A stretch of 37,271 nt of DNA from NCBI GenBank assembly GCA_028290355.1, contig JAQGKA010000122.1, positions 1 through 37,271 on the forward strand, given 5' to 3'. Of this stretch, positions 2,766-35,760 are shown piece after piece. Position numbers and translations under genes: made by a program. How positions within the stretch are numbered: the first letter of the stretch is position 1; each line of letters begins with the position of its first letter. Origin of the DNA: Tardiphaga sp. GTDB taxonomy: Bacteria; Pseudomonadota; Alphaproteobacteria; Rhizobiales; Xanthobacteraceae. The notes under the pieces are model-generated. The model did no database searches. It had not been told where the DNA came from and was given only the letters and a program-made list of their open reading frames with translations.

Positions 2766-3812
2766 CTACGCGGCAGCCGCTGGCGGATTCTCGAAGTCCA
2801 GCACGATGCGACCTTCGATCTGACCGCGGCGCATGCGATCGAATACATCGTTGATGTTCTCGAGCGTGTCGGTCTTCACGGTCGCATGCACCTTGCCGTC
2901 GGCGGCGATGTCGAGCGATTCCTGAAGGTCGAGCCGCGTACCGACGATCGAACCGCGCACCGTGATGCCATTCAGTACAGTGTCGAAGATCGACAGCGGG
3001 AAGTCGCCTGGTGGCAAGCCGTTGAGAGAGACGGTGCCGCCGCGGCGGACCATCCCCATCGCCTGCTGGAACGCCTTGGGCGACACCGCAGTGACAAGCA
3101 CGCCCTGCGCGCCGCCGATTTCCTTCTTGATGAAGGCCGCCGGATCGGTTTTCAGCGCGTTCACGGTGAGCGCGGCGCCGAGCTTGCTAGCAAGCGCCAG
3201 CTTGGCGTCGTCGACATCGACAGCGACAACATTGAGTCCCATCGCCTTGGCATATTGCACGGCCATGTGGCCGAGCCCGCCGATGCCCGAAATCGCTACC
3301 CAGTCGCCGGGCTTGGTATCGGTGACCTTCAGACCCTTGTAGACGGTCACGCCCGCGCACAGGATCGGCGAAATCTCCACGAAGCCGACATTGGCCGGCA
3401 GGATGCCGACATAGTTCGGATCAGCCAGCACATATTCGGCGAAACTGCCGTTGACCGAATAGCCGGTGTTCTGCTGCTCTTCGCACAGCGTCTCCCACCC
3501 GCCCAGGCAATGCACACAGTGGCCACAGGCACTGTAAAGCCAGGGCACGCCGACACGATCGCCCTCCTTCACATGGGCGACGCCGCCTCCGACCGCGACG
3601 ACATGGCCGACGCCTTCGTGTCCGGGAATGAACGGCGGGTTCGGCTTGACCGGCCAGTCGCCCTCGGCGGCGTGAAGGTCAGTGTGGCAGACGCCGGTGG
3701 CAGCGATCTTGACGAGAATCTGCCCGGGGCCGGGCATCGGCACCGTGACTTCCTCGATGACGAGCGGCTTGCCGAACGCACGAACGACGGCCGCCTTCAT
3801 GGTCTTCTGCAT
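2766..3812 (-). CDS. adhP: zinc-dependent alcohol dehydrogenase, AdhP type
   Basis: This 348-residue medium-chain dehydrogenase interconverts primary alcohols and aldehydes with NAD. Catalytic zinc ligands are visible at C42 (GVCHTDL), H65 (GHEGVG) and C152. Structural zinc ligands are C96, C99, C102 and C110. The Rossmann glycine motif GIGGLG is at about 176-181. Length matches the AdhP family. The start ATG has AGGAA about eight bases upstream; a second ATG four codons in is possible. The gene follows the aldehyde dehydrogenase by 47 bases on the same strand, so the two are probably one operon that takes an alcohol through its aldehyde to an acid. The natural substrate is not evident. Confidence 0.93.
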
Positions 3813-9800: not shown

Positions 9801-10147
9801 CAAAAACAAGCCCCTACGATTCCGCCGAATTTCTGAATACGCCCGCGGCGATCGAATTCTATATGGCGGAGGCTCTGGAAACCGGTGATCCCGCTTTCAT
9901 CATGCACGCGCTCGGCGTCGTCGCGCGAGCAAAGAGCATGTCCGATATCGCTCGAAAGACCGGACTGGCGCGCGAGAATTTATACAAGGCACTCTCAGCC
10001 ACGGGCAGTCCTGAATTCTCGACGGTCCTTCGCGTTCTGAAAGCGCTGGATCTCAAGCTGACGATACAGCCCAAACCGGCCAAGGCAACGAAGCCGCTCC
10101 CGACAAAAAACGTCGTGCGAAAGAAGGGGGTAAAGGCTGCAGTCTGA
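9797..10147 (+). CDS. HigA-like antitoxin, HI1420 type, helix-turn-helix
   Basis: This 116-residue protein is the cognate antidote of the preceding toxin. A helix-turn-helix region is seen at about 45-90, around KSMSDIARKTGLARENLYKA and the following SPEFSTVLRVLKAL helix, so it can bind DNA. A lysine-rich C-terminal tail (about 95-116) follows and is probably disordered. The start ATG overlaps the toxin stop as ATGA; the longer in-frame ORF upstream is only a shadow of the toxin gene. It most likely neutralises the toxin and represses the operon at the TGTAT-N8-ATACA operator overlapping the -10 box. Confidence 0.9.
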   Translation: MTKTSPYDSAEFLNTPAAIEFYMAEALETGDPAFIMHALGVVARAKSMSDIARKTGLARENLYKALSATGSPEFSTVLRVLKALDLKLTIQPKPAKATKPLPTKNVVRKKGVKAAV

Positions 10148-10181
10148 CAGCCAAGCGCGACATCGATCGGCGCGCAAAGAA

Positions 10182-10208
10182 AAAGGGAGGCCTGAGAAGC
10201 CTCCCTTT
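10182..10208. terminator. strong hairpin terminator after the toxin-antitoxin operon
   Basis: A perfect 10-base-pair stem, AAAGGGAGGC and GCCTCCCTTT, with a seven-base loop, 35 bases after the antitoxin stop. A-rich and T-rich ends allow function on either strand. It is the main feature of the gap 10148-10568, which also holds a short C-rich repeat (10255-10271) and a CtrA box. Confidence 0.75.
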
Positions 10209-10254
10209 GCCTGGACCGATCTTTCCGCGCCGGGTGGATTTTTCGAAATCCGAT

Positions 10255-10271
10255 ATCCCCACCCCTCCCCG
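10255..10271. repeat. C-rich direct repeat, copy 1
   Basis: The 17-base string ATCCCCACCCCTCCCCG occurs here and again identically at 12875-12891, each time downstream of a terminated gene. It looks like the edge of a degraded intergenic repeat family. Function is unknown. Confidence 0.5.
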
Positions 10272-10402
10272 CGCGACGACCAAACCTTGTTTGCAGCCAC
10301 CCTGGTATCAAACGTCCGCGTCGCAGGCCCCCTGGAGAAAAGCCCGCAGCGCCATGGAGTAAGGCGATACTACCCGCTCTCCACCGCTCGCCAACAACAT
10401 GC

Positions 10403-25708: not shown

Positions 25709-26497
25709 TCAGCGCAATCCGAGCATCGCACTTTGGCAAGTCGGGGAAAGCGACGCTGCGTTTGCTCGCAAGCATTCGACAGCCCGTCCGCCGCCAAGCG
25801 GGACGTTGCTGCAATAGGTGCGGAAATCTCCGCCGCAAGCCGACCGGACAAGCATGATTTCCCGGCGCGGAGAAATGGCGCGCATCGGAACGACCGGCGC
25901 GGCACCGACAGTCGTTGGCGCGGGGCTGGCCGTGCTCGCCGCAGATCCGGCTGCCGCCGGAGCACCGCCCACGGCGCTGACAGCCTGCTGACAAGGCTGC
26001 GAAAGTTTGGCCGAGTTGGTTTGCAGGCAGCTCAACGCGGCGGCTCCGCCGGGCGGGATACTTGCGCAATTCGCTTCATAGTCCGAGCGGCAGACCTGAC
26101 GTATCGTGTCGGTCTGCGCCTGACTGGGCTGTTGCTTTGGCGCAGCAGCAGTCGCTGCTTTTGGCGCCGCGGCTGCAGGAGTTGCTGCGGCTTTGGGCGC
26201 GGAAGCCGGCGCTGCAGCAGCGGGCGTTGCAACCGATGGCTTGTCGATCGCGCTCACGGCCGTCTGACATGAGGCCGACAGACTCGCCATGTTTTTCTGC
26301 AAGCACATCAGTGCCGGTTTGCCCCCCGTCGGGACGCTCGCACAATGCGCCTCGTAATCAGAGCGACATTCCTCGCGGATCGCATTGCGTTGCGCCGATG
26401 TCGGCTGCTGCGATGCAGCAGGAATTGTTAGGACAACTAAACTTGTCGAGATAACAGCAAGCAGCGCCGCCAGGCGGCGTTCAAGACCTTTGGTCAT
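25709..26497 (-). CDS. exported protein with three cysteine-rich repeats
   Basis: This 262-residue protein has a signal peptide (about 8-29) and three copies of a four-cysteine unit: C44/C52/C65/C77, C136/C144/C157/C169 and C221/C229/C242/C254. All three have identical spacing of 8, 13 and 12 residues. The units read like CRSDYEAHCASVP with a GGKPALMCL middle and resemble the Cys-rich repeat family of the eukaryotic Golgi protein GLG1 (from memory). Alanine/proline-rich linkers join them. Expected location is the periplasm, with disulphides. The ATG at 26497 follows GGAG. It is divergent from the RND efflux operon, 181 bases away. Confidence 0.85.
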   Translation of the reverse strand: MTKGLERRLAALLAVISTSLVVLTIPAASQQPTSAQRNAIREECRSDYEAHCASVPTGGKPALMCLQKNMASLSASCQTAVSAIDKPSVATPAAAAPASAPKAAATPAAAAPKAATAAAPKQQPSQAQTDTIRQVCRSDYEANCASIPPGGAAALSCLQTNSAKLSQPCQQAVSAVGGAPAAAGSAASTASPAPTTVGAAPVVPMRAISPRREIMLVRSACGGDFRTYCSNVPLGGGRAVECLRANAASLSPTCQSAMLGLR

Positions 26498-26678
26498 TTT
26501 GATCTCCAATGCTTTGCCTGGTTCAGGACGTGTCAGCAGCAAATTAAATCAAGCGGCGACGAGCAGAGACCTCAATGGCCAAAGACTGCCCGCTTTTGAA
26601 TTTTCCGGCAAGAAGAATGTGCTATTAATCGAGCGAGCGGGCCTGCTTGCCGAAACATGTCGACAGGGAGGAAGGGGA

Positions 26679-27881
26679 ATGGAGTCCTTTCATTTGCTGC
26701 CCGATGTTGAGCCTCGGAGTTCTGCGAGGTTTTCAAGATATTCCACGCAACGCATCGCTCTCGCTTTGGCCGCACTCGGCCTTCTCACGGCATGCGAACA
26801 AAACAGTTTCGTTCCGCCGTCTCCGCCAACCGTCGAGGTTGCGCAGCCCGTTCAGAAAGCAATCACGCGTTATCTTGAAGCAACCGGCAACACCGCGCCG
26901 ATCAAGACGGTCGATCTCGTGGCACGCGTGCAAGGCGTCTTGCAGTCCATCAACTACAAGGATGGAACGTTCGTAAAGGAAGGCACTACGCTTTTCACGA
27001 TCGAACCCGAGACCTACAAGCTGAAGCTGGATCAGGCCCAAGCATCTGAGGCGGGCCTTCAGGCCCTGCTGAAACAAACCGAGGCCGAATTCAAGCGACA
27101 GTCGGATCTCGTCTCCAAACAATTTGCGTCGCAAGCCACATTCGAGCAGGCAACTGCCGCACGCGACAGCGCTCAGGCAAACCTGCAGCAGGCTCAGGTC
27201 AGCACCAAGATCGCAGCCGTCAACTACGGCTACACCAATGTGACGGCGCCGTTCGACGGCATCGTGACCGCGCATCTGGTTTCGGTCGGCGAGCTCGTGG
27301 GTGCCGCGTCGCCGACCCAGCTCGCGACGATTGTGCAGCTCGATCCGATTTATGTGAACTTCAATGTCAGCGAGCAGGACGTTCTGCGCATCCGCGCGGA
27401 AGCTGTGAGAAAGGGACTGAAGCCGACCGATCTTCTGAGCATTCCCATCGAGGTTGGCTTGCAAACGGAAACGGGCTACCCGCATGTCGGCAAGCTCGAC
27501 TACGCCGCACCGACGGTTAATCAATCGACGGGAACGCTCGCGGTTCGCGGTGTCCTGCCGAACGAGAATCGCGTGTTGCTGCCGGGCTATTTCGTCCGCG
27601 TCCGCGTTCCCGTCGATGAGTCGGCGAAGGCATTGCTGGTCCCCGACGTTGCATTGGGCAGCGATCAGGCCGGCCGGTACGTTCTAGCCGTCAACAAAGA
27701 CGATGTCGTCGAACAGCGCAAAGTGGAGGCCGGTCCGCTCGATGGCAATCTGCGTGTCATCGAAAAGGGACTGGCGCCCGAAGATCGCGTGGTGATTGCC
27801 GGCATTCTGCGCGCCATTCCCGGCCAGAAGGTGAATCCAAAGGTCCAGACGATCGAGCAGCCCCGCGCGTCAGCCAACTAG
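26679..27881 (+). CDS. RND efflux periplasmic adaptor (membrane-fusion protein), lipoprotein
   Basis: This 400-residue HlyD-family adaptor has a lipoprotein signal with lipobox LTAC (C39). The barrel-sandwich and hairpin regions follow: GVLQSINYKDGTFVKEGTTLF, then an alpha-hairpin (about 110-180), NVTAPFDGIVTAHLV, and the beta-barrel and membrane-proximal domains to the C-terminus. It would bridge the inner-membrane pump and an outer-membrane channel. The ATG at 26679 follows GGAGG by about seven bases; the ORF upstream is not coding. The pump gene starts eight bases after its stop. Confidence 0.95.
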   Translation: MESFHLLPDVEPRSSARFSRYSTQRIALALAALGLLTACEQNSFVPPSPPTVEVAQPVQKAITRYLEATGNTAPIKTVDLVARVQGVLQSINYKDGTFVKEGTTLFTIEPETYKLKLDQAQASEAGLQALLKQTEAEFKRQSDLVSKQFASQATFEQATAARDSAQANLQQAQVSTKIAAVNYGYTNVTAPFDGIVTAHLVSVGELVGAASPTQLATIVQLDPIYVNFNVSEQDVLRIRAEAVRKGLKPTDLLSIPIEVGLQTETGYPHVGKLDYAAPTVNQSTGTLAVRGVLPNENRVLLPGYFVRVRVPVDESAKALLVPDVALGSDQAGRYVLAVNKDDVVEQRKVEAGPLDGNLRVIEKGLAPEDRVVIAGILRAIPGQKVNPKVQTIEQPRASAN

Positions 27882-27889
27882 GATCGCGC

Positions 27890-30800
27890 ATGATTTCGAA
27901 ATACTTCATCGAGCGCCCGGTTCTCGCCAACGTCATCGCGATCCTGATGGTTCTCATCGGCGCGGTGGCGCTTTTCAATCTGCCCGTTGCGCAGTATCCC
28001 GACGTTGTTCCGCCGACTGTTCAGGTGACAACGCGCTATCCCGGCGCCAGCGCGCAGATCGTCGTCGATACCGTGGCGCTCCCGATCGAGCAGCAGGTCA
28101 ACGGCGTCGAGGACATGCTCTACATGCAGTCCTACAGCGGCGCGGACGGCAGCTATACGCTCACCGTGACGTTCAAGATCGGGACCGACCTCAACTTCGC
28201 GCAGGTGCTGGTGCAGAACCGGGTGTCGAGTGCATTGTCGGCGCTGCCGCAAGCAGTGCAGACACAAGGCGTGAACGTCCAGAAACGTTCGACGGCCATC
28301 CTGCTGTTCGTCACCCTCACCTCGTCGGATTCCGCGTACGACAGTCTTTACCTAAGCAACTACGCCACCATCAACCTCAAGGATGAACTGGCCCGCCTGC
28401 CCGGCGTCGGCAATGTGACGGTGTTCGGCGCCGGCCAGTATTCCATGCGGCTATGGCTCGATCCGAGCAAGCTTCAGTCGCGGGGACTGATGCCGCAGGA
28501 CGTCATTCAATCGGTGCAGCAACAGAGCCAGCAGGTGACCGCTGGCCAGGTCGGCATGCCGCCGACGCCGGCCGGGCAGGCCTTTCAATACACGCTGAAT
28601 GTCAATGGGCGGTTCGACGACGTCGACCAATTTGCCAACGTCATCGTCAAGACCGGCAACGCCGGCGATATCACCCGTCTGCGCGACGTCGGCAGAGTCG
28701 AGTTGGGCGCCCAGACCTACAGCCAGGTGTTTTCGCTCGACAAGCGTCCGGCCACGGGCATCGGTGTGTTTCAATCACCCGGCGCCAATGCGCTCGACGT
28801 CGCCGGCGAGGTCAAGAAGAAGATGACCGAACTCGCCAAGGGATTCCCGCAAGGGATCACATTCGACGTCCCGTTCGACACCACCAAATTCGTCCAGGCA
28901 TCCATCGACGAGGTCTACAAGACGCTGATCGAAGCGGCCTTGCTGGTGCTGATTGTGATCCTCGTGTTCCTGCAGGACTGGCGCGCCATGCTGGTGCCGG
29001 CAACTACCGTGCCCGTGACGATCATCGGCGCTTTTGCCGCGATGGCAGCCTTGGGATTCACGGTGAACCTCTCGACCTTGTTCGCCATCATCCTCGCTAT
29101 CGGCATCGTGGTCGACGACGCCATCGTCGTCGTGGAAGGCGCCGCGCACAATATCGAGCAGGGAATGTCGGGACCGCAGGCGGCGATCAAGGCGATGGAC
29201 CAGTTGTTCGGCCCGATCATCGGCATCACGCTGGTGCTGATATCGGTATTCCTGCCGGCCGCATTCCTGCCAGGCCTGACCGGGCGCATCTATGCGCAGT
29301 TCGCGCTGGTGATCGCAGCCACGGCCCTCATTAGCGCAATCAACGCGGCAACGTTGAAACCAACGCAATGCGCGTTGTGGCTGCGCCCCGCGGTGCCGCC
29401 GGATCAGCGCAACTGGTTCTATCGCGGCTTCAACTCGGTCTATGGGCGGGTGGAGCGTTGGTACGGAAACCTGATCGGTCGTCTCGTCGCACACAGCGGG
29501 ATGTCGGTGATCGTGGCGCTGATCCTGATCGGCATCGGCGGCTACGGTCTGTCGCGCGTGCCGACCGGCTTTCTGCCGATCGAGGATCAGGGCTACCTGC
29601 TTGCGGCCGTTCAATTGCCGGACGGAGCCTCGCTCGACCGCACCCGGCAGGTGATGGACCGGGTCAGTGAGATATCCGGCAAGACGCCCGGCGTGGCGCA
29701 CGTCCTCGGCATTTCCGGCATTTCCGCGCTCGACAACAGTGCGAGTCTGGCCAATGCCGGCGTCGCCTATCTCGTCCTCAAGGACTGGAGCGAACGTGGA
29801 GCCGGCGAGGATTTGCGATCGCTGGTGGTCGGGCTCAATCAATCGCTCGCAGCCATTGCCGAAGCGCGGGTCATCGTACTGCCACCGCCACCGATTCAGG
29901 GCATCGGCAACGCCGCCGGCTTTGCCATGCAGGTTGAGCTGCGCGACGGCAGCTCCGATTACAACAAGCTGCAGGCCGTCACCAATGCGGTTGTTGCCAA
30001 CGCCCAGACGCAAAGTTCATTGCAGCGGGTCAACTCTCCGTTCCGCTCGATGGTGCCGCAGTTCAACGTCGAAGTGGACAGGATCAAGATCCAGACACTG
30101 CATGTCTCCACCGATCAGGTGTTCTCGGCGCTGGCGTCATATCTCGGATCGAGCTACGTCAGCCAGTTCAACAAATTCGGCCGGACTTTTCAGATCTACG
30201 CCCAGGCGGATGCTCCGTACCGGCTGAACACGCGGGACATCGAGAACATGATGGTGCGCAATCAGCAGGGCGACATGATCCCGCTCGGCACGGTGGCGAA
30301 GATCACGCCGGCGATCGGCCCCTCGCTTGTCAGCCTGTATAATCTCTATCCAGCCTCGACGATCATCGGTTTGCCCGCGCAAGGCTTCAGTTCCGGCCAA
30401 TCCATCGCGCTGATGGAACAGATCGCGGCCAGGACGCTGCCGCCCGGCACCGGCTACGAATGGACCGCGATGTCCTACCAGGAGAAGATCGTCGGCAACC
30501 AGATCTACTACACGTTCGGTCTGGCGATGCTGCTGGTCTATCTGGTGCTGGCCGGACAATATGAAAGCTGGTACGCGCCGATCTCCGTCATTCTCGCCGT
30601 GCCGCTTTCCTTGCTCGGACCGATGTCGGTGCTGACCGGGTTGCGGATCGAAAACAACCTTTATGTCCAGATCGGGCTGATCCTGCTGATCGCCCTTTCC
30701 GCCAAGAATGCCATCCTGATTGTCGAGGTGGCGCGCGAACTGCGCGTGCGCGACGGCAAGCCGTTGCTTGAATCCGCTGTCGAAGCCGCGCGCGCCCGCT

Positions 30801-31033
30801 TCCGACCGATCATCATGACGTCGTTTGCCTTCATTCTCGGTGTTGCGCCGCTGGTACTGGCAAGCGGTGCGGGAGCCAGTGCCCGCAAATCGATTGGCAT
30901 CACGGTCTTCAGCGGCATGATCGCTTCGACCTGCCTGGCGGTGCTGTTCGTGCCGGCATTCTTCGTCATCGTTCAGCGGTTCGAGGAGTGGCGCGCGAGC
31001 CGAAAGAAGCAGGTGAAGCCTGTCACCGTGTGA
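27890..31033 (+). CDS. RND multidrug efflux pump, HAE-1 (AcrB/MexF-like)
   Basis: This 1,047-residue inner-membrane proton-driven pump has the typical length and twelve-helix, two-repeat layout. The N-terminus MISKYFIERPVLANVIAIL is family-typical. The proton-relay pair D409/D410 lies in IGIVVDDAIVVVEG, equivalent to AcrB D407/D408. Large periplasmic loops follow helices 1 and 7. It forms a tripartite pump with the upstream adaptor. No outer-membrane factor gene or dedicated repressor gene is adjacent, so the channel must come from elsewhere. Substrate range is unknown. Confidence 0.97.
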   Translation: MISKYFIERPVLANVIAILMVLIGAVALFNLPVAQYPDVVPPTVQVTTRYPGASAQIVVDTVALPIEQQVNGVEDMLYMQSYSGADGSYTLTVTFKIGTDLNFAQVLVQNRVSSALSALPQAVQTQGVNVQKRSTAILLFVTLTSSDSAYDSLYLSNYATINLKDELARLPGVGNVTVFGAGQYSMRLWLDPSKLQSRGLMPQDVIQSVQQQSQQVTAGQVGMPPTPAGQAFQYTLNVNGRFDDVDQFANVIVKTGNAGDITRLRDVGRVELGAQTYSQVFSLDKRPATGIGVFQSPGANALDVAGEVKKKMTELAKGFPQGITFDVPFDTTKFVQASIDEVYKTLIEAALLVLIVILVFLQDWRAMLVPATTVPVTIIGAFAAMAALGFTVNLSTLFAIILAIGIVVDDAIVVVEGAAHNIEQGMSGPQAAIKAMDQLFGPIIGITLVLISVFLPAAFLPGLTGRIYAQFALVIAATALISAINAATLKPTQCALWLRPAVPPDQRNWFYRGFNSVYGRVERWYGNLIGRLVAHSGMSVIVALILIGIGGYGLSRVPTGFLPIEDQGYLLAAVQLPDGASLDRTRQVMDRVSEISGKTPGVAHVLGISGISALDNSASLANAGVAYLVLKDWSERGAGEDLRSLVVGLNQSLAAIAEARVIVLPPPPIQGIGNAAGFAMQVELRDGSSDYNKLQAVTNAVVANAQTQSSLQRVNSPFRSMVPQFNVEVDRIKIQTLHVSTDQVFSALASYLGSSYVSQFNKFGRTFQIYAQADAPYRLNTRDIENMMVRNQQGDMIPLGTVAKITPAIGPSLVSLYNLYPASTIIGLPAQGFSSGQSIALMEQIAARTLPPGTGYEWTAMSYQEKIVGNQIYYTFGLAMLLVYLVLAGQYESWYAPISVILAVPLSLLGPMSVLTGLRIENNLYVQIGLILLIALSAKNAILIVEVARELRVRDGKPLLESAVEAARARFRPIIMTSFAFILGVAPLVLASGAGASARKSIGITVFSGMIASTCLAVLFVPAFFVIVQRFEEWRASRKKQVKPVTV

Positions 31034-31348: not shown

Positions 31349-31371
31349 AAAAAAAGCGCCCCCGCAGGGGC
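31349..31371 (-). terminator. Rho-independent terminator of the zinc-ribbon microprotein operon
   Basis: On the minus strand a GCCCC/GGGGC stem with a TGCG loop is followed by GC and a run of seven T residues. It lies 36 bases beyond the stop of the second zinc-ribbon gene, marking the end of that transcript. Confidence 0.8.
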
Positions 31372-31406
31372 AAGGTTTCCAGTGTGTGAGGGAGCGCAGC
31401 ACTGGA

Positions 31407-31592
31407 TTAATTCTGGTCTGCGACAGACGGGTCAGGACATTTGTAGAGCCATCTCCAATAAGCCTTGTTGCGTTCCCACAAGCGCCTGTAACTCTCGCGG
31501 CACCTGGTCGAGCAAAACTGCTCGAAGCGCCAGCTGCATCGGACCAACCCGAAGGGACGTTTGCAGTCCGGATTGCCGCAATGATTTTTCAT
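31407..31592 (-). CDS. zinc-ribbon-like microprotein B
   Basis: This 61-residue basic protein has cysteines C5, C10, C19, C27 and C31 (KNHCGNPDCKR, VRCSW, FCSTRCRESY). The C-x4-C and C-x3-C knuckles resemble a treble-clef/zinc-ribbon finger; C19 is extra. An aromatic/basic helix follows (RRLWERNKAYWRWLYK). The ATG overlaps the stop of the upstream microprotein gene by four bases, so translation is probably coupled. A strong terminator follows. No named family is recognised; DNA, RNA or protein binding is only inferred from the fold type. Confidence 0.72.
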   Translation of the reverse strand: MKNHCGNPDCKRPFGLVRCSWRFEQFCSTRCRESYRRLWERNKAYWRWLYKCPDPSVADQN

Positions 31593-31753
31593 GACACGGC
31601 CTCCGCGTCGATTCGCCGTATCCAGCGAATGAAGCTCTCCTGACCTTCGTCAAGGCAGGACCGTCCGCAGTAATGTTCACGCGAAGGATTTCTCAGAGAG
31701 ATTATCTTTGGGTCTTCACTGTCGCACTCAGAACAACGTGGGCCTCTACGCAT
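31589..31753 (-). CDS. zinc-ribbon-like microprotein A
   Basis: This 54-residue protein has cysteines C7, C10, C29 and C33 (RCSECDSED and HYCGRSCLDEG), a C-x2-C and C-x3-C pair suited to bind one zinc ion. A short charged helix follows (ESFIRWIRRIDAEAVS). The ATG at 31753 has AGGAGGAG about eight bases upstream, a much better site than the ATG nine codons earlier. Its stop overlaps the start of microprotein B, which has the same paired-cysteine plan and is probably a distant paralogue. No family is recognised. Confidence 0.72.
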   Translation of the reverse strand: MRRGPRCSECDSEDPKIISLRNPSREHYCGRSCLDEGQESFIRWIRRIDAEAVS

Positions 31754-32034
31754 GGCGATCTCCTCCTGGGGAATAGCCATTTGCCGATCATCATGTGCTG
31801 CTTTATCTCGCCTTCGTGCTCTCGAAGGGCGACGATGTTTCCAGTCTCATTCCCTCCCGCGCCATTATCAACTCGTCTCAATGTTTGGTGCACCCATCCT
31901 TACGTATAACCCGATCGCAGCACGTTCATGCGCTTGTAGAACACCGCTACACTGTGACCTTCCTGTACTTTTTTCCACTGCCGCAAACCGATCGACACTC
32001 GCGACGTACGAGATGCTACGCCAGCCTAATAGCC

Positions 32035-32418
32035 TCATTTTCCCGCTCTCTCGCCGTACCCTTGCAGAGCTGTGTCAAGGCATTTGATCAACGCTTCTCC
32101 GCCGAAAGGCTTGGTCAGGAAACACGTCGCTTCTGCGTTCAGCGCTCGCGCGCTTTCAACGGGGAAGGCCGTGATGAAAATGAACGGCACGCGGTTTCCC
32201 TGAGCAAGCAGGCTGGCTTGCAGTTCAACACCGCTCATTGTCGGCATTTGAACATCCGCTATCACACATGACGTGTCATTCAGCTGGGGCGATCGCAAGA
32301 ACTCTTCGGCCGACGCAAATGTATGGACGATGTACCCAACCGACCTCACGAGGTTGTGGATCGCGGCGCGAACGGATCCATCGTCGTCAATGATTGAAAT
32401 GACTACTGGTTTGGGCAA
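32035..32418 (-). CDS. receiver-only response regulator
   Basis: This 127-residue protein is a single response-regulator receiver domain: acidic pocket DDD (11-13), phosphoacceptor D55 in IADVQMP, Thr in FITAFP and Lys in LTKPF. It has no output domain. It begins at TTG 32418, supported by AGGAAAG six bases upstream and by relatives starting at the same PKPVVISIIDDD; an ATG 24 codons upstream is the only alternative. It lies 140 bases downstream of the FixJ-like gene and probably receives phosphate from the same kinase or acts as a sink. Confidence 0.85.
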   Translation of the reverse strand: MPKPVVISIIDDDGSVRAAIHNLVRSVGYIVHTFASAEEFLRSPQLNDTSCVIADVQMPTMSGVELQASLLAQGNRVPFIFITAFPVESARALNAEATCFLTKPFGGEALIKCLDTALQGYGERAGK

Positions 32419-32558
32419 AGCGGTCTTTCCTGGAGGCGCAAACAGGGCGCTTCGTGCTGCACAGCCGCTTGACGGCAGAATGCATCGCAAATCAGGATCG
32501 GAAAATCATACTTAGGTTTGTAGCCCGCCAACAGACTCCGACCTAGAGCAGCTCCATT

Positions 32559-33218
32559 CTACGACGCTGCGCGCCGTATCCCGAGCGTCTCCGCCATCCT
32601 CACCAGGTCGGCCAACGACTTCGCAGCCATTTTCCTCATAATATGTCCGCGGTGTATCTTCACGGTGATCTCGGCAAGTCCGATTTCGGCTGCGATCTGC
32701 TTGTTCATGAGCCCGGCGGCGACCAGAGCCATCACTTCCCGCTCCCGAGGGGTCAGGGTCGCGAAAAGAGCATGCAAGTCCGAGTGGATCTTCGCATCAG
32801 TGCGACTCTTTCGGTCGCGCTCGATTGCTGTCGTCACGGCATCCAGCATGTCCTGATCGCGAAATGGCTTGGTCAGAAAATCGATGGCTCCGGCTTTCAT
32901 CGCCCTGACCGACATCGGGATATCGCCGTGCCCCGTCATGAAGATGATCGGAATGTGAATACCCGCCTTGGCCAGGTCGGCCTGAAAATCGAGGCCGCTC
33001 AGTCGAGGCAACCTGATGTCAAGGATCAGGCAACTGGCAACATCCGGAAGCTTGCTCAGCAGAAACTCAGAAGCCGAACCGAACACTTCGACCTGCAAGC
33101 CCACCGACCGGAACAGACTCCTGAGCGCTTCGCGCATTGAGACGTCGTCGTCGATGACGAAGACGATCGGTTCCTCGGCGCTGGCGAGATCGCGAGGCGA
33201 TATTGGGCGCCCGGTCAC
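32559..33218 (-). CDS. FixJ-type response regulator with LuxR helix-turn-helix
   Basis: This 219-residue transcription regulator has a receiver domain (about 17-130; DDD at 23-25, phosphoacceptor D67 in LILDIRLP, Thr in FMTGHGD, Lys in LTKPF) and a LuxR-type DNA-binding domain (about 150-212; LTPREREVMALVAAGLMNKQ and the following EITVKIHRGHIMRKM). The start is GTG, overlapping the upstream kinase stop by four bases (GTGA), so the two are translationally coupled. Its targets are unknown; FixJ relatives control respiration, nitrogen fixation or stress genes. Confidence 0.94.
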   Translation of the reverse strand: MTGRPISPRDLASAEEPIVFVIDDDVSMREALRSLFRSVGLQVEVFGSASEFLLSKLPDVASCLILDIRLPRLSGLDFQADLAKAGIHIPIIFMTGHGDIPMSVRAMKAGAIDFLTKPFRDQDMLDAVTTAIERDRKSRTDAKIHSDLHALFATLTPREREVMALVAAGLMNKQIAAEIGLAEITVKIHRGHIMRKMAAKSLADLVRMAETLGIRRAAS

Positions 33219-34966
33219 GGCGTATCGTCCTTTTGATGCAGCGGCAAGGTAAACTGAAACGTCGCGCCCGGCCCGACATTGCCGGAGGCTGACAGTCGCC
33301 CTCCGTGAGCGTCGATGATCGAGCGGCAGATCGATAGGCCCATGCCCATACCGCTGGATTTGGTGGTGAAGAAGGCGTTGAACAACTGATCAGCATTCTC
33401 GGCGTCTATTCCAACACCGTCGTCCTTCACCGTGACCAGAATTTTTCGAGCTTCGTCCTGGCGCGTTCGGATCATCAGTTCGCGCGGCCGGTCCGTGACC
33501 GATTGCATCGCTTCCATGCCGTTGACCACCAGATTGAGAATCACCTGCTGTAGCTGGATCCGATCGGCGAGGACCAGGGGCAGTGCGGGCGCGAGTTCCA
33601 TCCGCAGCGACACCCGGTGGCTGAACAATTCACGCTGCACCAGGGTGATAACCTCATTAACGACTTCATTGATGTGGAGCGGCACTTTCTGAACCGGGGT
33701 CTTGTTCACCAGCGCACGGACGCGCTGGATCACTTCGCCGGCCCGATTGCCGTCATTGATGATCGACTCCACCGTGCTGCGCGCTTCATCCAGGTTGGGC
33801 GTTTCGTGGTCAAGCCAACGCAGGCAGGCTGCGGCGTTGGTGACGACGGCGGCGAGCGGCTGGTTCACTTCATGGGCAATCGACGCGGTCAGTTCCCCGA
33901 GCGCCGTCACGCGCGTGACATGAGCAAGGTTCGCCTGCGCTTGATGCAGCTCCTCCTCGGCTCGCTTGCGTGCGGTGATATCCGTCACCGCTCCAACAAA
34001 CGCGAGGCAGCCCGATGCATCCTTTACAGCACGTGCCACGGCATGGACGTATTTCACTGAGCTGTCGGGCATCAGCAAACGATATCCGTGATCGAAATCC
34101 TTCCCGTCGCTGGACGCACGATCGATGGTCTGTTGCGCCAGAGCACGATCGTCCGGATGAATGCGTTGAACGACCATGTCGATGTTGACGGAAGGAGCCT
34201 TGTCGTACCCAAAAATTCTAAAGGTTTCCTCCGACCAAATGATCTCGCCGGTGGCGGTGCGCCAGCCAAAGCTGCCGGTGTGACTCAACCGCTGTGCTTC
34301 GGCCAAATACGTTTCGCTCTGCCGCAGGGCATTCTCCGTTTCCTTGCGCTCGGTAATGTCCTCGCACGCGATCAGGACGATCAACCGGTTATCCAACCGC
34401 CGCACGGCTTTGGCATTTTCACGAACCCAAAGTGCGGAACCGTCCTTTCGGACCTTTCGGATTTCCCAACTGTTCGTTTGGCCGATATTTTCCAGGCAGA
34501 CGGCAACATGTTTCTGGACCAGCTCTCGGTCTTCCTCGAAGAAGACTTTCAGCACGGATTGTCCAAGCAATTCGCTGACTGAATGGCCGAGTTGCGCAGC
34601 ACCAAGAGTGTTGACTGACAGGACGGTGCCGGTCGCGTCGACCATGAAATACATGACCGGGTTGTGCTCGAAGACCTCCCTCCATTGCGCCTCGCTATCG
34701 CGCAGCGCTTCCATCGCGCATTGCTCGGCCCTCGCTCGGTCCTGGAGCGCGGCTTCCATCTGCCTGCGGGTACTCTCCACGAGGCGCGTCATGATCAACG
34801 AGACCAGAAGCAAGGCGAGCAGCACGATGGCAATCAAATAAGCAAGGACCATTGGTGCAGGACCAAGCACGAGCCAAATGCCAGCCACAGTCACCAACGC
34901 CAGCACTGTGCTGCCGAGCAACCATTGCTCAGCTGAGCGCCGGAGTTTCATTGTCTGGTTACGCAT
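33215..34966 (-). CDS. membrane sensor histidine kinase with PAS domains (FixL-like)
   Basis: This sensor kinase (about 583 residues from the chosen start) has two transmembrane helices near the N-terminus, two or three PAS domains, and a HisKA/HATPase core. Visible boxes are SIAHEVNQPLAA (phosphorylated His), ILNLVVNGMEAM (N box), DDGVGI (G1) and FFTTKSSGMGMGLSI (F/G2). It shares the FixL/ThiB-type H-box group. It overlaps the response regulator by four bases. The start is uncertain: the frame stays open to 35314, with no clear ribosome site at any candidate ATG; I chose 34966 just before the first helix. Confidence 0.85.
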   Translation of the reverse strand: MRNQTMKLRRSAEQWLLGSTVLALVTVAGIWLVLGPAPMVLAYLIAIVLLALLLVSLIMTRLVESTRRQMEAALQDRARAEQCAMEALRDSEAQWREVFEHNPVMYFMVDATGTVLSVNTLGAAQLGHSVSELLGQSVLKVFFEEDRELVQKHVAVCLENIGQTNSWEIRKVRKDGSALWVRENAKAVRRLDNRLIVLIACEDITERKETENALRQSETYLAEAQRLSHTGSFGWRTATGEIIWSEETFRIFGYDKAPSVNIDMVVQRIHPDDRALAQQTIDRASSDGKDFDHGYRLLMPDSSVKYVHAVARAVKDASGCLAFVGAVTDITARKRAEEELHQAQANLAHVTRVTALGELTASIAHEVNQPLAAVVTNAAACLRWLDHETPNLDEARSTVESIINDGNRAGEVIQRVRALVNKTPVQKVPLHINEVVNEVITLVQRELFSHRVSLRMELAPALPLVLADRIQLQQVILNLVVNGMEAMQSVTDRPRELMIRTRQDEARKILVTVKDDGVGIDAENADQLFNAFFTTKSSGMGMGLSICRSIIDAHGGRLSASGNVGPGATFQFTLPLHQKDDTP

Positions 34967-35760
34967 CATCGGCAACACCACGCATTCAGCGAGCTTAGGT
35001 CCGCGCTGCGTCGCTAGGTGATCGTTATCATCAGCGGACCCCGCCGCCTCCAAGACAACCTCGCCGTCCAAACAGACTAGCAGCTTTTCGACGTTTTGGG
35101 ACATAATGCAGCATACCCTTACCCTTGCGCCGCCGTGCCGCGATCGTCCGGCCGGCGGCGCGACGAGATGGTTGTGCAGCGCCGTGGTGCCGACGAGGGT
35201 GACGCGAACCGACGCCCTCGCGCCGGTCTCGCGCACGCCGCACCCTTGAAGATTGCCTGGAACCACGATCCACGGATCGCGGCTGGCGGTGTTGTTGGCC
35301 CGCCCTTTCGACATTTAAGGAGCGAGCTCGCCTGGAGACCGATCTATCAGCATTCATTAACCGCCCGCTGATAATTTCAGCCTGCTGAAGATGCGTTCAA
35401 CGCACCGCAGGGCATCGGAGAAGCCGTGCAGATCGTCCAGACGACGGATGAAGTAGAGGCCCGACGTGCACGGCGCGCGCAGTTCAGCGGTCAAATATCG
35501 ACGCTTCAACTCGGCGGTCACACAGTCAGCGGATTGGTCCAATCCGTCATGCGAGACGCAGCGAGCAGTTCTCCTAGCTGGATCGTGAAAGTCATTCTGA
35601 AGGCCGAGCGACAATGCTCACCTGCCCTTCGTTATAATCCGCACACGCAGGCGTATACCGGTTAGATCCGGCAGCATCGTTTTGCGTTGTTTTGGAATGC
35701 CACGGACAAGGTCCGAAGAACGTGCCAGTACATGCCCAAGCCACCAACAAGGCGTCAAGC
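34967..35760. other. long region without a confident gene
   Basis: About 790 bases between the kinase and the alpha/beta hydrolase. The kinase frame stays open on the minus strand to 35314, so a longer kinase N-terminus is possible. On the same strand 35357-35614 encodes 85 residues from a TTG start, ending LYFIRRLDDLHGFSDALRCV and more; it reads like protein but has no ribosome site. Divergent promoters should lie here; none is clear. Confidence 0.4.

What the first reader, a model, noticed from the sequence alone, without database searches (positions are those of the whole stretch)
31349..31753. Tandem, translationally coupled zinc-ribbon microproteins with their own terminator
Two adjacent ORFs of 54 and 61 residues share the same paired-cysteine plan (CxxC or Cx4C, then Cx3C), overlap by ATGA, start from an excellent AGGAGGAG site and end in a clear terminator. 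They look like a duplicated pair of small metal-binding regulators, next to a three-gene phosphorelay. No known family is evident, so they could be a novel paired regulator or toxin-like unit.
Basis: partly seen in the sequence, partly recalled or inferred. Interest (0 to 1): 0.6.

Follow-up and report, generated by a model that had tools for sequence, protein, structure and literature searches.

The report
Zinc microprotein pair tied to phosphorelay
Two tiny four-cysteine proteins encoded by overlapping genes are real, selected genes that in 22 of 22 compared bacterial loci sit directly behind the same signalling gene cluster and a dedicated promoter-like element, so they are probably its target or feedback arm, although I found no name or test of them.

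Summary
ORF1 (54 aa, CxxC…CxxxC) and ORF2 (61 aa, Cx4C…CxxxC) are genuine genes. All eight cysteines and the ATGA overlap are conserved, pN/pS is about 0.25, and shifted frames give about 1.0–1.5. The terminator is real but occurs only in the window and its nearest relative. 'Duplicated pair' is not shown (BLASTP finds no similarity; profile comparison is weak). 'Toxin' has no support.

The larger result lies outside the given coordinates. In 22/22 loci (own genus, Bradyrhizobium and a third genus) the pair, or in one case ORF1 alone, follows a FixJ-type regulator and a single-domain receiver on the same strand, headed in 21 by a PAS histidine kinase. A 39-nt element 109–115 nt upstream of ORF1 (195 in one) occurs once per pair-bearing genome. 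In 300 family genomes, ORF1, the exact element and the FixJ-type regulator at ≥79% identity mark the same nine. ORF2-type and a second zinc-microprotein family also flank six paralogous kinase modules divergently.

Best reading: accessory treble-clef-like microproteins of a FixJ-type phosphorelay, driven by its regulator and probably feeding back on it. Module membership is shown. Promoter control is inferred. Feedback is conjecture.

The parts
31589..31753 (-). ORF1, 54 aa microprotein, CxxC-x18-CxxxC
31407..31592 (-). ORF2, 61 aa microprotein, Cx4C-x16-CxxxC with FGLVR...FCS; overlaps ORF1 by ATGA
31760..31767 (-). Shine-Dalgarno AGGAGGAG of ORF1 (AGGAGG-like core conserved in 24 aligned loci)
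31600..31604 (-). GGAGG, own SD of ORF2 inside the end of ORF1, conserved in most loci
31357..31372 (-). intrinsic terminator stem followed by T7; seen only here and in G170
31869..31907 (-). 39-nt conserved element ATACNNANGGATN8CAANCATNNNGACNNNTTG, putative promoter/activator site 115 nt before ORF1
32035..32490 (-). single-domain response regulator (receiver only; start codon uncertain)
32559..33218 (-). FixJ/LuxR-type response regulator (receiver + GerE)
33215..35314 (-). PAS-PAS-HisKA-HATPase histidine kinase (start uncertain), 4-nt overlap with the regulator gene

Best explanation
ORF1 and ORF2 are the two terminal genes of a five-gene signalling module: histidine kinase, FixJ-type regulator, single-domain receiver, ORF1, ORF2. 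They encode four-cysteine, probably zinc-binding, treble-clef-like microproteins. They are most likely transcribed from their own promoter, switched on by the phosphorylated FixJ-type regulator through the conserved TAC-box (ATACNNANGGAT) upstream of ORF1. The microproteins then probably bind the kinase, regulator or receiver and tune the pathway as small feedback or redox/metal-gated modulators. Shown: real genes, conserved cysteines, constant association with this phosphorelay, unique conserved upstream element. Inferred: metal binding and regulation by the FixJ-type regulator. Conjectured: feedback on the phosphorelay.
For: Same-strand order HK-RR-sdRR-ORF1-ORF2 in 21/22 loci; the 22nd (G124) keeps RR-sdRR-ORF1. 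Outer flanks are shared only with G170. In 300 family genomes the nine with the regulator at >=79% identity, with ORF1 and with an exact element are the same nine. Regulators of pair loci form one clade (96/92). Independent second arrangement: ORF2-type and 'MRFxLVN' zinc-microproteins flank paralogous HK-RR-sdRR modules divergently in G139, G024, G087, G168, G170 and G189. In G124 the decayed ORF2 is followed by an intact ORF2 paralogue. TAC(C/G)NAGG boxes recur in kinase-microprotein intergenic regions (11 seen, 0.31 expected; pattern chosen after inspection) and resemble the SELEX-derived FixJ site GTAMGTAG quoted in PMC4999443. Weak treble-clef matches: DUF2116 E=0.18 for ORF2; VATC E=3e-4 and zf-FCS E=0.017 for a relative; L24e for the family profile.
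Against: No expression, binding or phenotype data. The DNA-box resemblance is post hoc and the loci are related. AlphaFold models are of low confidence (pLDDT 71 and 67) and Foldseek found no PDB match for ORF2. Some strong ORF2-family members lie away from such modules (two in G170, one in G024; G064 near a contig end), so the protein family also has other contexts. No sigma-70-type promoter match in the region.
Confidence: 0.5

Rival explanations
1. The pair is simply a downstream effector of the phosphorelay: its products act elsewhere (for example on RNA polymerase, ribosome, gyrase or a metal pool) and do not feed back on the signalling proteins.
For: Own promoter-like element and fixed linkage fit a dedicated target equally well. 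ORF2 relatives resemble L24e/FCS-type treble clefs, which bind nucleic acid or protein. Stand-alone ORF2-family members exist away from such modules.
Against: Targets of a regulator usually scatter over a genome, whereas these genes stay adjacent in 22/22 loci and relatives recur beside paralogous modules, which favours an intrinsic part of the module.
Confidence: 0.33
2. Metal or redox buffering or metallochaperone pair; the phosphorelay next to it senses a metal or redox stimulus.
For: Four-Cys sites conserved in both proteins; TRASH-like cysteine spacing; in the window an RND pump lies next door; a molybdo-oxidoreductase and a cytochrome-like gene lie near one paralogous module.
Against: The RND pump is not conserved beyond G170. 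No membrane or transport genes are fixed neighbours. The kinase has no recognised metal-binding domain.
Confidence: 0.1
3. Small toxin-antitoxin-like unit made of two overlapping genes with a terminator.
For: Two tiny overlapping ORFs; patchy occurrence, 9 of 300 family genomes with ORF1.
Against: No PADLOC hit, inheritance with one regulator clade, one partner decayed and followed by a paralogue while the other stayed intact, no spread to unrelated sites seen.
Confidence: 0.04
4. Spurious ORFs in a conserved intergenic region.
For: Short length and no family match.
Against: pN/pS 0.25 in frame against about 1.0-1.5 out of frame, invariant cysteines, conserved SDs and overlap.
Confidence: 0.01

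Closest known systems
FixT, Fe-S-binding single-domain receiver that inhibits the kinase FixL (Caulobacter; PMC7078487)
   Same: Small four-cysteine protein tied to a PAS-kinase/FixJ-type pathway and acting as feedback; FixT itself is a receiver, like the third gene here.
   Different: FixT's cysteines lie in a receiver domain; ORF1 and ORF2 are not receivers and are separate, even smaller proteins.
One-domain zinc-finger microproteins of haloarchaea (PMC6562870)
   Same: Fewer than 70 aa, two cysteine pairs, mostly of unknown mechanism; [quoted passage not shown]
   Different: Archaeal C(P)XCG motifs; no fixed link to a phosphorelay in the passages read; no sequence relation shown.
FCS/MYM-type, TRASH, VATC and L24e treble-clef zinc fingers
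   Same: CxxC...FCSxxC plan followed by a helix; a relative of ORF2 matches VATC (3e-4) and zf-FCS (0.017), and the family profile matches L24e weakly.
   Different: ORF2 itself does not reach any curated cut-off; stand-alone microprotein rather than a domain of a larger protein.
YacG, small zinc protein that inhibits DNA gyrase (from general knowledge)
   Same: About 65 aa, CxxC...FCSxxC plan.
   Different: No Pfam or NCBIfam YacG hit for ORF1, ORF2 or relatives; different gene context.

Membership tests
Treble-clef zinc fingers of FCS/TRASH/L24e type | Two Cys pairs, the second (Cx3C) at the start of a helix, first Cys to third Cys about 19-22 residues apart | tested here: met
   Cys spacing conserved in A1, A2, A4; AF2 (low confidence) puts a helix from residue 29 in ORF2
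Treble-clef zinc fingers of FCS/TRASH/L24e type | Score above a curated Pfam/NCBIfam cut-off | tested here: not met
   Best for ORF2 is DUF2116 E=0.18; a relative reaches VATC 3e-4 but below cut-off
Treble-clef zinc fingers of FCS/TRASH/L24e type | Binds Zn | not testable with these tools
   needs protein and metal assay
YacG gyrase inhibitors | Match to the YacG profile | tested here: not met
   no Pfam or NCBIfam YacG hit at E<=1
FixT-type feedback inhibitors | Receiver fold | tested here: not met
   ORF1/ORF2 have no receiver match; the neighbouring gene does
FixT-type feedback inhibitors | Inhibits kinase autophosphorylation | not testable with these tools
   needs in vitro kinase assay
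FixJ/NarL-family two-component module (the neighbours) | Histidine kinase plus receiver-GerE regulator in one operon-like run | tested here: met
Toxin-antitoxin systems | Match to known TA/defence families; toxicity and rescue | tested here: inconclusive
   no PADLOC hit (that library covers defence systems); toxicity not testable here

The most novel reading that the evidence does not exclude
A previously unnamed class of paired treble-clef microproteins serves as metal- or redox-gated connector proteins of a group of FixJ-type phosphorelays in Nitrobacteraceae, re-arranged and exchanged between modules but kept with them.
Probability: 0.3. Interest if true: 0.72.

Novelty: new variant of a known kind. 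Interest (0 to 1): 0.52.

Why it matters
Bradyrhizobium-like genomes carry many FixJ-type kinase/regulator sets whose signals and outputs are mostly unknown. A microprotein pair locked to one clade, with a unique upstream element, gives an immediate reporter and a concrete candidate for how such pathways are tuned; the four-Cys sites suggest metal or redox input. It also shows that genes easily missed in annotation can be constant parts of signalling modules.

Tried and rejected
First pattern search for the element used a wrong spacing and found nothing even in the window; corrected to 8 N. Profile search of ORF1 against the PDB gave TOX4 at E=0.003, judged chance. Homology of ORF1 with the 'MRFxLVN' family: same CxxC-x18-CxxxC plan, but hhalign only 35%, left open. 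Hits of ORF2 at E 0.001-0.01 were mostly random frames and were discarded unless they kept the four Cys. Rfam on the window: nothing. A viral-contig search with A4 could not run for lack of conserved stretches. ORF2-family copies on Bradyrhizobium plasmids have no informative neighbours. The adjacent RND pump was rejected as part of the system because it is not conserved beyond G170. Literature searches found no paper on these proteins in the open library.

Full report
Observation. On the minus strand the window holds ORF1 (31589-31753, 54 aa) and ORF2 (31407-31592, 61 aa), overlapping by ATGA, with AGGAGGAG before ORF1. The terminator (31357-31372) is clear, but it is found only here and in G170. 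ORF2 has its own GGAGG-like SD, conserved in most loci, so coupling through the overlap is possible but not required.

They are genes. Homologous pairs occur in one complete genome of the same genus (G170, 91% and 87% identity) and in many Bradyrhizobium. G124, of a third genus, has ORF1 and an ORF2 remnant. The four Cys of ORF1 are invariant in 20 sequences; those of ORF2 are kept in all close homologues and, in the wider family, C5, C10, C27 and C31 are invariant. Median pN/pS is 0.25 for both, shifted frames give 0.99-1.54, and the TCATGA junction is identical in 19/19.

They belong to a module. In all 22 loci examined the genes follow, on the same strand, a FixJ-type regulator and a single-domain receiver; in 21 these are headed by a PAS histidine kinase and both ORFs are present. 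In the 22nd, G124, the best kinase match is a 50% paralogue on the other strand. Some of the 22 are the same or near-identical species seen through two collections (for example G106 and CSA112), so the number of independent cases is smaller. Other flanking genes are shared only with G170. In 300 family genomes the nine with the regulator at >=79% identity are exactly the nine with a strong ORF1 match and with a perfect 39-nt element; eight of them have intact ORF2. The regulators of pair loci form one clade (96/92).

The upstream element. ATACNNANGGATN8CAANCATNNNGACNNNTTG ends 109-115 nt before ORF1 in 21 loci (195 in G124) and occurs once per pair-bearing genome at up to 3 mismatches. Its first half resembles TAC(C/G)NAGG boxes found between kinase and microprotein genes in paralogous modules (11 seen against 0.31 expected; the pattern was chosen after inspection and the loci are related, so this is only indicative). 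It also resembles the in-vitro-selected FixJ site GTAMGTAG as quoted in PMC4999443. Direct regulation is therefore inferred, not shown.

A wider pattern. ORF2 is one branch of a family with the plan CxxC-xxFGL(I/V)R-...-CSxxC. Other members lie a few hundred bases from, and divergent to, the kinase gene of paralogous HK-RR-sdRR modules in G139, G024, G087, G168, G170 and G189. There they are accompanied by one or two members of a second family, MRFxLVN...CxxC-x18-CxxxCY. Those regulators fall in a second clade (100/96) in which one of seven modules (G284) has no detectable microproteins. In G228 the two families form another tandem pair with a 4-nt overlap, and in G212, G176 and G242 they lie close together in the same order. 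In G124 ORF2 has decayed and an intact ORF2 paralogue of the other branch follows ORF1. Several family members lie elsewhere (two in G170, one in G024, perhaps G064), so the family is not exclusive to these modules.

Relation of ORF1 to ORF2. BLASTP finds nothing. Profile comparison superposes the cysteines of ORF1, ORF2's family and the MRFxLVN family at 32-36% probability. A common treble-clef plan is plausible; duplication is not shown.

What they are. No Pfam, NCBIfam, PHROG or PADLOC family is convincingly matched by either protein. Sub-threshold matches of relatives point to FCS, VATC and L24e treble clefs. AlphaFold models are poor, though ORF2 shows a short hairpin and a helix starting at the CxxxC, as in treble clefs. 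Foldseek finds no PDB match for it. Zinc is therefore the likely ligand by analogy, not by test; an Fe-S cluster is not excluded.

Mechanism. The best-supported reading is a dedicated output of the phosphorelay that stays with it and most likely feeds back on it. FixT (PMC7078487) is the nearest working example: a four-Cys receiver protein that inhibits FixL autophosphorylation. It is a model for how this could work, not a family to which ORF1 or ORF2 belongs. A plain downstream effector remains a serious alternative.

Verdict. The combination (unnamed zinc-microprotein families recurrently linked to FixJ-type phosphorelays) appears undescribed in the open papers searched, but both ingredients are of known kinds, hence 'new variant of a known kind'.

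Noticed in passing
L117, L118, L119, L171: In paralogous kinase modules with divergent zinc-microprotein clusters, a roughly 130-aa protein with the motif SCCNxxDCYPT and no Pfam family lies in the cluster.
   Followed up: partly
L070 (G124) 9850-10330: ORF2 decayed, followed by an intact ORF2 paralogue of the other branch after ORF1.
   Followed up: partly
L174 and L175 (G170): MRFxLVN-type zinc microproteins lie a few kb from long ORFs that look by eye like quinol-oxidase subunit I genes; a broken ORF2-type pseudogene is in L174.
   Followed up: no
window 26385-31033 +: RND efflux pump (HlyD-type adaptor and AcrB-type transporter) convergent with the pair; shared only with G170.
   Followed up: partly
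plasmid records NZ_CP121651, NZ_CP094524, NZ_CP126037: ORF2-family microproteins on Bradyrhizobium plasmids with no gene listed there in the (incomplete) PLSDB table; possibly overlooked genes.
   Followed up: partly
L128 6299-6741 (-), L131 near 3198-3404 (+): Tandem MRFxLVN + ORF2-type pairs in another genus, away from the kinase modules seen here, with a 4-nt overlap in L128.
   Followed up: no
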